Assembly: GCA_902626065.1 (NCBI GenBank)
Contig: CACODT010000001.1
Location: 148,986 to 212,985, forward strand
Direction: 5' to 3'
DNA from: an uncultured Candidatus Actinomarina sp.
Lineage (GTDB): Bacteria > Actinomycetota > Acidimicrobiia > Actinomarinales > Actinomarinaceae
DNA length: 64,000 bases
Shown here: positions 8,026-21,724 of the stretch, piece by piece
Numbering within the stretch: position 1 is the stretch's first letter
How the letters are laid out: each line of letters starts with the position of its first letter
Program-made: the position numbers and the translations under genes
The notes under the pieces: generated by a model
The model's database searches: none
Told to the model about the DNA's origin: nothing
The model's input: the letters and a program-made list of their open reading frames with translations, nothing else

Positions 8026-9078
8026 TCAAAATGTAGAATTCTCCTTTTCATTAAGATACAGAAAGTAGCTAAAGTAAAAAAACCAAGATACAGAGTGATT
8101 TTGTAATAAATCACTTGATAAACTCAATAACAGAAATGCCATAATTGCCATAAGATTTGGTGAGTAGTTTGTTAAATCTCTTAATTTAAAAAGACTTAAT
8201 ATAAGATCCTTAAAAATTAATCCGTACAAAAACAGGCCCACAATCCCGTAATTTAAAAGTATGAATAAATATGAATTGTGAGGACCATAAGAAAAAGGAT
8301 TATCATCAAAGTTTTTGGAATCGAGTACCTCATTTCCTTTTATTACGAAATTATCATACCCTCTTCCAAAAATATTATTGATAATTGAATCTTCTGAAAC
8401 ATATTGTAATGTTCCTGATTGCATTTCAACTCTATCTTGGATACCGCTGTTATCATCTTGAATGAATCTATCTATTAAACCAAAATTTACACATATCAAT
8501 AAAGAGCCAATTAATAATAAAATAGTATTTAGTTTTTTATCTTGAAGCATGATTCTAAATAATATAAATAAAACCAAAACAATTAGAGAAAACCGTGAAT
8601 ATGTAAAGAAACATCCAACAATTGAGAATGGAATTATTACACGTAAATAACTACTTTCCATCCTGAACATTGAATATATTCCTGTTACAGTAATCAAATC
8701 AGCAAAACTGTTTGGCCCCCCCGCCTGAAATCCATTTGTTCTTCCTTTGATATATTCAATATCACTTAAATTAATTCCTATATTCCAAGTCTGATAGATG
8801 TCTTTGCCAAGATTTATCGAGAATAAATATGAAAGAATTGAAAACGAACTTAAAAACAGAAATATATAGAAAGGAAAAGTGTTTATATAATTTTTTTCAC
8901 CTATAAGTGATATAAATATAAATAAAAAAAGATAAAATCCAAATCGCAGGATTTCAGAATGAAATAATACGCCATTCACAAAAAAATTTTGAATTATTAG
9001 ATAAAAAATAAAAAATACAAAATACATGTAATTTTCAATTTTTAAGGAGACATTTTCAATATTAAAAAGAAGATACAT
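8026..9078 (-). CDS. O-antigen polymerase/ligase-like membrane protein (Wzy type), 5' end displaced
   Basis: This polytopic membrane protein probably polymerises repeat units on the outer face of the membrane. The intact frame from the first ATG gives 350 residues with many hydrophobic helices, GRTNGFQAGGPNSFADL near 110-126 and the GPHNSYLFILLNYGIVGL loop motif near 265, as in the Wzy_C family. The same frame stays open upstream to about 9215 and encodes a further hydrophobic segment ending FVHTDDLPILLFFSLA, characteristic of this family, but it has no standard start codon. The ATG pair at 9218-9223 is out of frame by one base because of a T5 run at 9207-9211 (see findings). Confidence 0.82.
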   Translation of the reverse strand: MYLLFNIENVSLKIENYMYFVFFIFYLIIQNFFVNGVLFHSEILRFGFYLFLFIFISLIGEKNYINTFPFYIFLFLSSFSILSYLFSINLGKDIYQTWNIGINLSDIEYIKGRTNGFQAGGPNSFADLITVTGIYSMFRMESSYLRVIIPFSIVGCFFTYSRFSLIVLVLFILFRIMLQDKKLNTILLLIGSLLICVNFGLIDRFIQDDNSGIQDRVEMQSGTLQYVSEDSIINNIFGRGYDNFVIKGNEVLDSKNFDDNPFSYGPHNSYLFILLNYGIVGLFLYGLIFKDLILSLFKLRDLTNYSPNLMAIMAFLLLSLSSDLLQNHSVSWFFYFSYFLYLNEKENSTF

Positions 9079-18537: not shown

Positions 18538-19668
18538 ATGAATATTTTAAATAAATATACTTATCTTCTTCTTGGATTACTAGGAATTGCAGGGATCGTT
18601 ATTTTGGTTTTTTTACCGAATCTAGAAACTGAGGAATTTAGTCAAGATGTAATTGATGACATTATTGAGGGTGTTACAACAACAACAATTTCAGAAGCTG
18701 AGATTAATGAAGCATCTGTAGATGAATCATTTACAAATTTAGGAGACGAACTAATTATTTCAATTGAAGATAAGTCTCAAATTGAAGATATGTTGTTGTA
18801 CAACAATTTTGAAAAAGAAATTGATAGTTTTGATACATATTTACTTATTGGATCAGATGAAAGATCAGAAAAAATTGCCGAAACACGAGGTGAAATTGAA
18901 GGTAAAAGAGCTGATGTAATAATTCTGGGTCTCGTTGAAAAAGGAACAAATGAAATCACACTTTTATCATTTCCTAGAGATTTATTAATAGAAAACAATT
19001 GCACAAATAATTTAGAAAGAATAAATGCGGCATATTCAAAAAATGAGTGTGGTGGAAGGGCGGAAAATTTAGCTGCTGCCATTTACAGTATATCTGGAAT
19101 AAGAGTAGATCATTTCGCTAGTTTTGATTTTGAGGGTTTTGAAGAAATTATTGACTCCGTAGAGGGTATAGAAGTCTGTGTTAATGAGACTCAAAGAGAG
19201 GGATTTAGTTTTGAATTACAAAAAGGATGTCAAACGGTAAATGGATTGACAACCTTAAATTGGGTTGTTTCAAGATCAACAGAAGTCCTAGTAGGTGAAA
19301 AAATTATTGATAAAGACGGAAATGATATTTCGAATTGGAGACCTATGCCTGGCGTTAGTGATTTATCAAGAATTGAAAGACAGCAATACGTAGTGATGCA
19401 ACTGATAAATGAATTAAGAAATTTTGAATCAATAAACGAACTCTACGGGTTTATAAATGCTTTAGAGAATGCTTTCGTTATTGATGAAAATTTAACAATA
19501 AATAGAGCTGTTGATATCTTGTGGACATTTAGGAACATCGAGCTAAGTAATGTAAAAAAATTAACTACACCAGTAAACTATTTAACTTTGAGTGATGGAA
19601 GACAAGTTCTAGTTTTAAGCGAAACTATTGAAGACTTTTTGAATAAGAACTCAATTATTGATTCTTAA
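18538..19668 (+). CDS. LytR-CpsA-Psr (LCP) family glycopolymer ligase
   Basis: LCP enzymes attach lipid-linked glycopolymers to peptidoglycan outside the membrane. It has 376 residues: a single N-terminal transmembrane anchor (about 8-28), a linker rich in acidic and Thr residues, then the LCP domain. LCP landmarks are DTYLLIGSDER near 99-109, ADVIILGLVEKG near 124, LLSFPRDLLI near 141 (the conserved Arg), ERINAAYS near 161, and DHFASFDFEGFEEIIDSVEGIEVCV near 192. The SRSTEV and DLSRIERQQYVV segments near 236 and 276 match the polyprenyl-phosphate pocket. With three Wzy-like proteins in the window it probably anchors their product to the wall. Confidence 0.93.
   Translation: MNILNKYTYLLLGLLGIAGIVILVFLPNLETEEFSQDVIDDIIEGVTTTTISEAEINEASVDESFTNLGDELIISIEDKSQIEDMLLYNNFEKEIDSFDTYLLIGSDERSEKIAETRGEIEGKRADVIILGLVEKGTNEITLLSFPRDLLIENNCTNNLERINAAYSKNECGGRAENLAAAIYSISGIRVDHFASFDFEGFEEIIDSVEGIEVCVNETQREGFSFELQKGCQTVNGLTTLNWVVSRSTEVLVGEKIIDKDGNDISNWRPMPGVSDLSRIERQQYVVMQLINELRNFESINELYGFINALENAFVIDENLTINRAVDILWTFRNIELSNVKKLTTPVNYLTLSDGRQVLVLSETIEDFLNKNSIIDS
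19645..19666. terminator. Hairpin across convergent stop codons, T-run on + side
   Basis: Arms AAGAA-c-TCAA and TTGA-TTCTT pair with one bulged C around a TTA loop. The hairpin covers the stops of the LCP gene (+) and the O-antigen-ligase-like gene (-). On the + strand it is followed by AAAGTTTTTT (T6 at 19671-19676), which makes it a fair intrinsic terminator candidate for the LCP transcript. Confidence 0.45.
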
Positions 19669-21630
19669 AGTTTTTTCAAAGAAATAGATTGGTATGAGCC
19701 AAAAATATATTGCTACATCTGGAGCATAAATTAAATCATTTGTTAAATTTTGTGTAATCAACATTAACAATATTGCTAATTCGATAGCGTTAGAGCTTTT
19801 AAAATTTTTAAATATCGAATAAAAAATTAATAACACAATTAATAAAACAATGACTAAACCATATTCAACTGCCATGGTTAAAAAACCATTATGTGATGTT
19901 GTAATTTCGTCGAACTGTGAAAGTGAGAATTCTGAGATGATTGTATTAAATTTGCCGTTATCTGCAATCAGTTGACCTGATCTTAGACTCTGACCACCTA
20001 AAAAGTTTGAATAACCACTTTGTATATCTTCAACCCAAAAAAAGTACATTTTTCCATCTACAATTGACCATTTCCATGATTGATTATTTTCTTTTTCATT
20101 AATTTTTAAAATTGAACTTTGACTAAATAAAGTTTCGTTTCCTTTTGGAATATTGTCCAAATCTAAATTTATGATTATTTCAAAATCTTTTCCAGATAAT
20201 GTTGTTTCATTGGGAATAGCAATCCAGTAACTTCGTGGCCTTTTTAACTTCAACCCATTATTCTTGTAAACAATTTTTCCATCATTCCTGTTGTCGTAAT
20301 AATCACTTGAAGCTGGTAAAAATATAAAATAATTTTTGTCCCTATTACTTTCTCTAAAGCTATAACTATAAGCTTTATCATCTACCTCAATTGTTAGATC
20401 ATTTATATAGCCATCTAAATACGATCCTCCAGGAGATTGACCATCAGCCCAGCCACCAACTTCAAAAAACGAATTATTATCAATTAGATCAATGACTACA
20501 CCACTTGTATGATTGGAACCAATTTGTTTCCAGTCATTGCCGTTATTTGAAAAGAAGAATGAAACAATTGACCTAGGAAGTATGTTGTCTCTATAATCAA
20601 ATTTCATTTTTAGATATCCCCCAGCTGGCTCCTCACTGCTGTTATCAATTAATTTATTCACATCCTCTTTTTGATTTGCTGAATATTTAATATTAAATTT
20701 ATCCATTAATATTTCATCATCTAACGTTATAAGATAATCTTTATAAACCTCCTTTATATAGTTGCCACCCCCCGTACCGTTTAAAATTTCAATATTAATT
20801 AAACCAATAGAATTTAAATATCCCCTATTTGACTGTTTAAGAAATATGGATGGAAATAAAAAAATTACAGCTAATCCAATTGCTAATGTACCAACTGTAA
20901 AATATATTTTTACTTTTTTTTCAATTGAGTTGGTAAATGAAAGAATTACAAACATCCCCACAACAAAAGCTAGATATGAGCCTCTTGAGAATGTTAAGTA
21001 GAGATTTAATAATGAAATTATTAGAAAAAGAGTATTTGATTTATTTTCAAATAAATAATTTTTAAAGTTATTACTTAGTGAGATTTTGTAGAGGCAAATT
21101 AATGAAGCTATTGCACATATGATACCTATTACATTTGGCCCACCACCTTGAAACCCTCCAAGTCTTCCAGATGTAAATGGATTGGTACTATCAGTATTAT
21201 TACTAATCCAGCCATCAATGGTTCCGGGGAGTTCAATTTGGAAAATAACTAGTACAAAATTGCCAATCATAACTAGTGATAGAGGTTCAAAAATTTCAAT
21301 AATGTTGTCATTATTTTTTCTTACAAATTCAATGCAAAGATAAGAAAGCACAAAATAAAAGTAAAATCTTAAATTTGTTTGGTTTAACAAATTTATTTCG
21401 TCCGTTAAGAAAGTTGTATATAAAACGAAAATTATGAAAAATGATATGAATGCTTTATCAAACCTATCAAAATTAAGATTCCTTAATCTATTTGTCAATA
21501 AAACAACAAAAATTGCAATTAAGGGAATGTCTTCAAAATTAACCCCAAAAAAATTTAAGCCAAAATTTGAAGGTATTAATAAAGTTATTGCAAAAATCGA
21601 TCCAATTAGACGAGAATTTATCCGACTCAT
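19651..21630 (-). CDS. O-antigen ligase/polymerase-like membrane protein with large extracytoplasmic insertion
   Basis: This polytopic protein of the O-antigen ligase (Wzy_C) family probably polymerises or transfers lipid-linked glycan outside the membrane. It has 659 residues from ATG 21630; a GTG at 21648, two bases after tRNA-Met, is an alternative. Membrane helices fill about 5-270, with GRLGGFQGGGPNVIGI near 155 as in other Wzy proteins. The family's large outer loop is expanded to roughly 300 residues (about 270-575) and contains a beta-rich, Trp/Asp/Gly-rich segment resembling LamG/concanavalin-like domains. The family motif SHNGFLTMAVEYGL follows near 578, then further helices. Typical members have 400-450 residues. 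Confidence 0.85.
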   Translation of the reverse strand: MSRINSRLIGSIFAITLLIPSNFGLNFFGVNFEDIPLIAIFVVLLTNRLRNLNFDRFDKAFISFFIIFVLYTTFLTDEINLLNQTNLRFYFYFVLSYLCIEFVRKNNDNIIEIFEPLSLVMIGNFVLVIFQIELPGTIDGWISNNTDSTNPFTSGRLGGFQGGGPNVIGIICAIASLICLYKISLSNNFKNYLFENKSNTLFLIISLLNLYLTFSRGSYLAFVVGMFVILSFTNSIEKKVKIYFTVGTLAIGLAVIFLFPSIFLKQSNRGYLNSIGLINIEILNGTGGGNYIKEVYKDYLITLDDEILMDKFNIKYSANQKEDVNKLIDNSSEEPAGGYLKMKFDYRDNILPRSIVSFFFSNNGNDWKQIGSNHTSGVVIDLIDNNSFFEVGGWADGQSPGGSYLDGYINDLTIEVDDKAYSYSFRESNRDKNYFIFLPASSDYYDNRNDGKIVYKNNGLKLKRPRSYWIAIPNETTLSGKDFEIIINLDLDNIPKGNETLFSQSSILKINEKENNQSWKWSIVDGKMYFFWVEDIQSGYSNFLGGQSLRSGQLIADNGKFNTIISEFSLSQFDEITTSHNGFLTMAVEYGLVIVLLIVLLIFYSIFKNFKSSNAIELAILLMLITQNLTNDLIYAPDVAIYFWLIPIYFFEKTLRINN

Positions 21631-21650
21631 AATTGTATTTTTACTCACTG

Positions 21651-21724
21651 TGGGCCCGGCAGGACTCGAACCTGCGACCGACGGATTATGAGTCCGTTGC
21701 TCTAACCAACTGAGCTACAGGCCC
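21651..21724 (-). tRNA. tRNA-Met (CAT)
   Basis: A complete cloverleaf on the minus strand: acceptor GGGCCTG/CGGGCCC (with one T-G pair), D-arm AGCTCAGTTGGTTAGAGC, anticodon loop ACTCATAAT with CAT, T-arm GGTTCGAGTCC. The discriminator is A and no CCA is encoded. A lysidine-modified tRNA-Ile2 with the same CAT anticodon cannot be excluded. It sits between the SCP2 gene (stop 5 bases upstream) and the O-antigen-ligase-like gene (start about 20 bases downstream). Confidence 0.93.

What the first reader, a model, noticed from the sequence alone, without database searches (positions are those of the whole stretch)
19651..21630. O-antigen-ligase-like protein with a roughly 300-residue outer-loop domain
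Family members usually have 400-450 residues. This one has 659, with the increase in the large extracytoplasmic loop just before the conserved SHNGFL motif. The insert (about residues 270-575) is beta-like, with Trp/Gly/Asp-rich repeats such as WIAIPNETTLSGKDFEIIINLD, WKWSIVDGKMYFFW and GGWADGQSPGG, resembling LamG/concanavalin carbohydrate-binding domains. A sugar-binding module beside the active site could select the acceptor or measure chain length. The gene faces an LCP ligase, pointing to wall-linked glycan.
Basis: partly seen in the sequence, partly recalled or inferred. Interest (0 to 1): 0.55.

Follow-up and report, generated by a model that had tools for sequence, protein, structure and literature searches.

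The report
Sugar-polymer enzyme with inside-out lectin domain
A membrane enzyme that probably builds or attaches a surface sugar chain in a tiny marine bacterium carries, in the loop next to its likely active site, a sugar-binding-type domain whose two halves are wired in swapped order, and in sister species a second, cell-wall-binding-type module as well.

Summary
The 659-residue protein (19651-21630, minus; Candidatus Actinomarina) is a Wzy_C/O-antigen-ligase-like membrane protein whose outer loop before the SHNGFL motif is 319 residues, against 68 in a paralogue in the same window. It is no chimera: all 16 aligned relatives keep the insert, and the convergent LCP gene lies beside it in 30 of 30 loci.

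The insert is not an ordinary LamG domain: Pfam gives nothing significant. Profile comparison shows a circularly permuted copy of a beta domain found in phage tail proteins. Residues ~335-416 match its C-terminal half and ~466-556 its N-terminal half. hhalign probability rises from 89.7% (native order, one half) to 97.4% (halves swapped, whole domain); 100 column shuffles reached at most 1.9%. 28 of 29 native inserts show the swapped order; 0 of 29 reversed and 0 of 290 shuffled do.

A sister clade adds ~170 residues in the same loop resembling three SLH repeats (96.1%; shuffles at most 9.8%), a module known for binding wall polymers.

Both AlphaFold jobs failed (pLDDT ~30), so the fold is inferred. 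Glycan binding and the docking role are untested. New variant of a known kind.

The parts
19651..21630 (-). whole gene, 659 aa (alternative GTG start at 21648)
20839..21630 (-). residues 1-264: membrane core, first part, with the GRLGGFQGGGPN motif similar to one in the paralogue and the first half of the Wzy_C match
20629..20838 (-). residues 265-334: start of the outer loop and variable lead-in; in the long-form relatives this is where the SLH-like triplet sits
20383..20628 (-). residues 335-416: matches the C-terminal half of the phage tail domain (GYLKMKF...FEVGGWADGQSPGG...INDLTIEV)
20236..20382 (-). residues about 417-465: joiner between what would be the natural C and N ends of the domain
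   Evidence: rotation scan
19963..20235 (-). residues 466-556: matches the N-terminal half of the phage tail domain (RSYWIAIPNETTLSGKDFEI...QSWKWSIVDGKMYFFW)
19879..19896 (-). SHNGFL motif with His580, in the place of the family's catalytic-His motif
   Evidence: role from literature passages
19654..19884 (-). residues 583-659: membrane core, second part
18538..19668 (+). LCP (LytR-CpsA-Psr) glycopolymer transferase, convergent neighbour
   Evidence: conserved in 30 of 30 loci
21650..21724 (-). tRNA-Met directly upstream, at the edge of the envelope-polysaccharide gene cluster
8026..9078 (-). 350-aa Wzy_C paralogue without the insert

Best explanation
The protein is a Wzy_C/O-antigen-ligase-like, undecaprenyl-PP-dependent sugar-polymer transferase whose catalytic outer loop has taken up a circularly permuted beta-sandwich domain of the kind used in phage tail proteins. 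Swapping the halves puts the domain's free ends at a surface loop instead of at its natural termini, so the domain can hang between two membrane helices directly over the active site. Most likely it holds a glycan there: either the acceptor wall polymer or the growing chain, so that the enzyme joins lipid-linked sugar chains to the right partner before or alongside the neighbouring LCP transferase. In a sister clade the same loop also carries an SLH-like triplet, which would dock the enzyme to the wall polymer. Shown by sequence profiles: the insertion, its permuted order, its relation to the phage tail domain, the SLH-like triplet, its conservation and its neighbours. Inferred: the beta-sandwich fold, glycan binding, and ligase rather than polymerase action.
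For: Anatomy (about 0.85): hhalign of the 29-sequence insert against 14 phage domains gives native order 89.7%/score 46.1, one half only; swapped order 97.4%/78.4 over template 12-175 of 178; each half alone 94.0% and 86.8%; reversed 0.9%; 100 column shuffles at most 1.9%/20.8. The native insert aligns across the junction of a doubled template, 96.2%/69.4. HMMER: 28 of 29 native inserts show the C-half match before the N-half match; 0 of 29 reversed, 0 of 290 shuffled. tblastn: swapped query hits Arthrobacter phage Shoya tail fibre E 0.04 over 75%, native only E 0.5 over 24%. Long form: SLH-like triplet 96.1%/61.8, 200 shuffles at most 9.8%/25.9. Role (about 0.4): the genus's own SLH triplet lies in a SpoIID-like protein with peptidoglycan-binding-like repeats (my reading); 30 of 30 loci have the convergent LCP gene; the locus lies at a tRNA edge of an envelope-sugar cluster like the island described in PMC7771536 (section 9); EmbB, another membrane glycosyltransferase, has outer beta-sandwich carbohydrate-binding modules proposed to guide the acceptor (PMC7341804 passages).
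Against: Both structure predictions failed (mean pLDDT 30.4 and 31.6), so no fold search was possible. Neither the insert nor the phage family matches a solved structure significantly, and the phage family's own link to LamG is weak (probability 15%). No sugar-binding residues were identified. Wzy_C score stays under the cut-off (24.6 of 31.7 bits). The 29 inserts are related, so counts are not independent. The SLH match without the genus's own SLH sequences is only 9.9% (shuffles at most 3.3%) and Pfam SLH does not ring.
Confidence: 0.45

Rival explanations
1. The protein is a polymerase (Wzy) rather than a ligase, and the insert grips the growing chain or sets its length.
For: Wzy_C covers polymerases and ligases alike (established knowledge of the family); in monoderms the LCP enzyme is the usual ligase (PMC7831098 passages), and an LCP gene is next door in 30 of 30 loci.
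Against: The cluster already holds two other Wzy_C-like genes (window 8026-9078, 47.4 bits; L087:16634-18022, 18.9 bits). This one is found in 8 of 8 near-complete genomes of the genus, unlike a glycotype-specific polymerase; the SLH-like triplet suits a fixed wall partner better.
Confidence: 0.3
2. The insert is a structural or protein-protein domain (for example contact with LCP or another partner) with no sugar binding.
For: Many beta-sandwich domains bind no sugar; no binding residues were found; the phage relatives are annotated mostly as tail or hypothetical proteins.
Against: Position in the catalytic loop, and company of an SLH-like triplet in sister species.
Confidence: 0.2
3. Two incomplete copies of the domain stand side by side (a duplicated domain, each copy having lost one half) rather than a permuted single domain.
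For: Gives the same order of matches.
Against: The two halves add up to one domain over template 12-175 of 178, and the order is the same in 28 of 29 sequences.
Confidence: 0.08
4. Assembly chimera or disordered low-complexity insert.
For: None found; only the lead-in of about residues 318-334 is variable.
Against: Conserved in 16 of 16 aligned sequences with invariant residues through the insert; separate genomes agree.
Confidence: 0.01

Closest known systems
WaaL O-antigen ligase / Wzy_C (PF04932) proteins
   Same: Membrane core, conserved His-Asn motif at the end of the large outer loop, Wzy_C halves on both sides of the insert
   Different: About 270 extra residues in that loop; profile score under the cut-off with the insert in place
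Beta domain of phage tail proteins (Arthrobacter phage Shoya gp25 and 13 relatives, alignment A5)
   Same: Both halves match, and the whole domain is matched once the halves are swapped
   Different: Order of halves swapped; sits in a bacterial membrane enzyme
EmbB/EmbC/AftD arabinosyltransferases with outer carbohydrate-binding modules
   Same: Works-like: membrane glycosyltransferase with outer beta-sandwich modules proposed to guide the acceptor (PMC7341804 passages)
   Different: Different enzyme family; modules at other positions and not permuted phage-type domains in the catalytic loop; no membership claimed
SLH domain proteins
   Same: Long-form relatives have an SLH-like triplet
   Different: Absent from the window protein; Pfam SLH not reached
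Brucella WadA
   Same: O-antigen ligase with an added domain (PMC9938171 passages)
   Different: There a cytoplasmic glycosyltransferase is fused to the N end; here the addition is inside the outer loop

Membership tests
Wzy_C (PF04932) O-antigen ligase/polymerase | Pfam gathering score 31.7 bits | tested here: not met
   24.6 bits for the window protein; 28.8 with residues 297-565 removed. Of 5 proteins tested without insert, 1 passes (L022, 38.4)
Wzy_C (PF04932) O-antigen ligase/polymerase | Profile matched end to end once the insert is removed | tested here: met
   4 of 5 give one stretch over profile 1-2 to 148 of 149; L009 does not, and scores of L009 and L015 fall slightly (26.2 to 24.1; 31.1 to 29.8)
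Wzy_C (PF04932) O-antigen ligase/polymerase | Conserved His at the end of the large outer loop | tested here: met
   H580 N581 invariant in 16 of 16; equivalence to the WaaL His is by profile position and literature passages, not by structure
Wzy_C (PF04932) O-antigen ligase/polymerase | About 12 membrane helices | tested here: inconclusive
   8 hydrophobic segments by a simple scale, which merges neighbours
O-antigen-ligase activity | Transfer of lipid-linked glycan to an acceptor | not testable with these tools
   needs a bench assay
Laminin_G_3 / LamG | Pfam gathering score 27.6 bits | tested here: not met
   0 of 16 inserts; best 15.1 bits; 16.4 with halves swapped
Phage tail-protein beta domain (A5) | Homology over both halves | tested here: met
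   halves 94.0% and 86.8%, whole swapped 97.4%; 28 of 29
Phage tail-protein beta domain (A5) | Same order of strands | tested here: not met
   order is swapped; rotation scan optimum at residues about 417-477
Concanavalin A-like fold | Beta-sandwich structure | tested here: inconclusive
   AlphaFold failed; phage family to LamG 15%
SLH domain (long-form relatives only) | Three SLH repeats | tested here: inconclusive
   hhalign 96.1% over three repeats, but 9.9% without the genus's own SLH sequences and no Pfam SLH match in any of 9 members

The most novel reading that the evidence does not exclude
A class of glycan ligases that carry their own acceptor-docking modules in the catalytic loop: a permuted phage-tail-type lectin domain, with or without an SLH triplet, so that the enzyme is tethered to the wall polymer it modifies. 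Host enzyme and phage tail would then use the same domain family to recognise related envelope sugars.
Probability: 0.3. Interest if true: 0.75.

Novelty: new variant of a known kind. Interest (0 to 1): 0.57.

Why it matters
[quoted passage not shown] A fixed enzyme at the edge of their variable sugar cluster, with a conserved module in its active-site loop, is a handle on how variable surface sugars are joined to a constant anchor. Circular permutation as a way to fit a domain into a membrane enzyme loop, and a domain shared between phage tails and a host sugar enzyme, are both testable. No paper describing this was found in the held library (searches of open-licence full text only).

Tried and rejected
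Plain LamG reading: rejected as a family call; the insert against the LamG set of the class gave only 0.3-0.7% in hhalign. Viral-contig scan with the full alignment: 12 pattern matches, no relative. Phylum scan with A1: 13 of 396 genomes including the window's own; the other 12 genomes have short matches, E 2.9e-7 to 9.7e-5. I read 7 of their 13 loci: L036 is a Wzy_C-like protein with a TPR-like C end and no insert; no such insert was seen in the other readings, though in L044 the longest frame printed was not a Wzy frame. Phylum scan with A5: 1 of 198, weak. PDB searches with A1, A2, A5, A6, A8: nothing significant. hmmsearch of single sequences with swapped against native order gives nearly the same total (median best domain 16.7 against 15.7 bits; swapped better in 23 of 29), as expected when both halves are scored apart; it supports homology of the halves, and the order comes.

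Dropped rows: 20 LamG matches were found and 17 used (L059, L061, L067 left out as partial). SLH set: 26 sequences, some holding fewer than three repeats; L098, L100, L101 and the many other matches were not used. Of 27 complete or nearly complete frames 16 went into A1/A2; all 27 plus 2 partial ones (L018, L019) went into the script alignment; L020 (broken) was left out, and L024 lacks its N end. G034 (long form) had no locus and was not aligned. A6 has 9 of the 10 long forms fetched (L025 left out). Of 22 phage records, 10 were fetched.

Full report
What is there. The gene at 19651-21630 (minus) encodes 659 residues. Pfam gives Wzy_C (O-antigen ligase) at 24.6 bits, under the cut-off of 31.7, over residues 201-262. 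A simple hydrophobicity scan shows a 319-residue hydrophilic stretch at 265-583, against 68 residues in a 350-residue paralogue in the same window (8026-9078, Wzy_C 47.4 bits). The two proteins are related (BLASTP E 3e-5 over the first part). Removing residues 297-565 lets the Wzy_C profile match in one stretch from end to end in 4 of 5 proteins tested; one of the five passes the cut-off, and two lose a little score.

Where it is. The genome belongs to Candidatus Actinomarina: three close relatives are so named. The gene lies directly beside a tRNA-Met (in one search it was found in 15 of 18 loci, the other three being cut at that edge) and faces an LCP gene in 30 of 30 loci. A study of these genomes describes one island of envelope-sugar genes present in the whole order, using tRNAs as insertion points (PMC7771536; passages and section 9 read). 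By gene content the window holds one end of such an island; that it is the same island is my inference.

Conservation. 31 of 42 genomes of the genus have the gene; 8 of 8 that are at least 90% complete have it; the 11 without are 51-87% complete. None of 107 genomes outside the genus matched. There are two size classes: about 660 residues (17 complete frames) and about 800-834 (11 genomes, 10 fetched). On an unrooted tree of the membrane core the 10 long forms form one group with support 0.999.

The insert. Single Pfam searches do not name it. Reading the sequence, I noted that its first part looks like the second half of a lectin-type beta domain and its second part like the first half (a resemblance recalled, then tested). 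With the halves exchanged, tblastn of the window's insert against phage records found an Arthrobacter phage tail-fibre protein (E 0.04, 75% covered, across the junction), against E 0.5 and 24% for the native order. That phage domain and 13 relatives from phages and viral contigs were aligned (A5). Profile comparison: native 89.7%, score 46.1, one half only; exchanged 97.4%, score 78.4, E 9.5e-12, template 12-175 of 178; reversed 0.9%; 100 column shuffles at most 1.9% and score 20.8. Scanning rotations in steps of six, the best cut lies at about residues 417-477. The native insert aligns across the junction of a doubled template (96.2%). In 28 of 29 native inserts the C-half match comes before the N-half match; in 0 of 29 reversed and 0 of 290 shuffled. 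The insert is therefore best read as a circularly permuted copy of this domain. The name concanavalin A-like is recalled for such sandwiches; the computed link of the phage family to LamG is weak (15%, colinear), and two AlphaFold runs failed.

The long form. Its extra ~170 residues (A6, 9 sequences) hold eight invariant Cys and resemble three SLH repeats: 96.1% against 26 SLH sequences including 14 of the genus, with 200 shuffles at most 9.8%; only 9.9% when the genus's own sequences are left out, still above all 200 shuffles (at most 3.3%). Pfam SLH gives no match. Each of 14 Actinomarina genomes searched has one SLH-bearing protein of about 990 residues; the window genome's copy reads as SpoIID-like with peptidoglycan-binding-like repeats (my reading, not tested). 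SLH triplets bind pyruvylated wall polymers in other bacteria (PMC7831098 passages).

How it most likely works. The family transfers undecaprenyl-PP-linked glycans, and a conserved His in the main outer loop is needed for ligase activity (PMC9938171 and PMC10449877 passages). The insert ends about 25 residues before His580, which I take as its equivalent. I propose that the insert holds the acceptor or growing glycan over the active site, and that the long form adds a wall-docking module. This resembles EmbB, where outer beta-sandwich modules are proposed to guide the acceptor (PMC7341804 passages). None of this role is shown here. A polymerase role is the main rival.

Verdict. A real and conserved feature, a new variant of a known enzyme kind.

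Noticed in passing
L087:16634-18022 (minus) and window 8026-9078 (minus): Two further Wzy_C-like genes in the same sugar cluster (18.9 and 47.4 bits), so the genome has three such proteins within about 30 kb.
   Followed up: partly
L117 (G000 contig C2, 62864-63331): One SLH-bearing protein of about 990 residues per Actinomarina genome (14 of 14 searched), reading as SpoIID-like with peptidoglycan-binding-like repeats.
   Followed up: partly
L020: Copy of the gene in genome G038 with 12 stop codons inside the best match; the assembly may be error-rich.
   Followed up: no
L069:1147-1659 and alignment A5: The beta domain shared by tail proteins of actinophages and a Cellulophaga phage reaches no Pfam family in the one protein scanned, so it may be an undescribed domain family.
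   Followed up: partly
L087:18019-19653 (minus): A 544-residue protein that reads like a heparinase/alginate-lyase type enzyme inside the sugar cluster (reading only, not searched).
   Followed up: no
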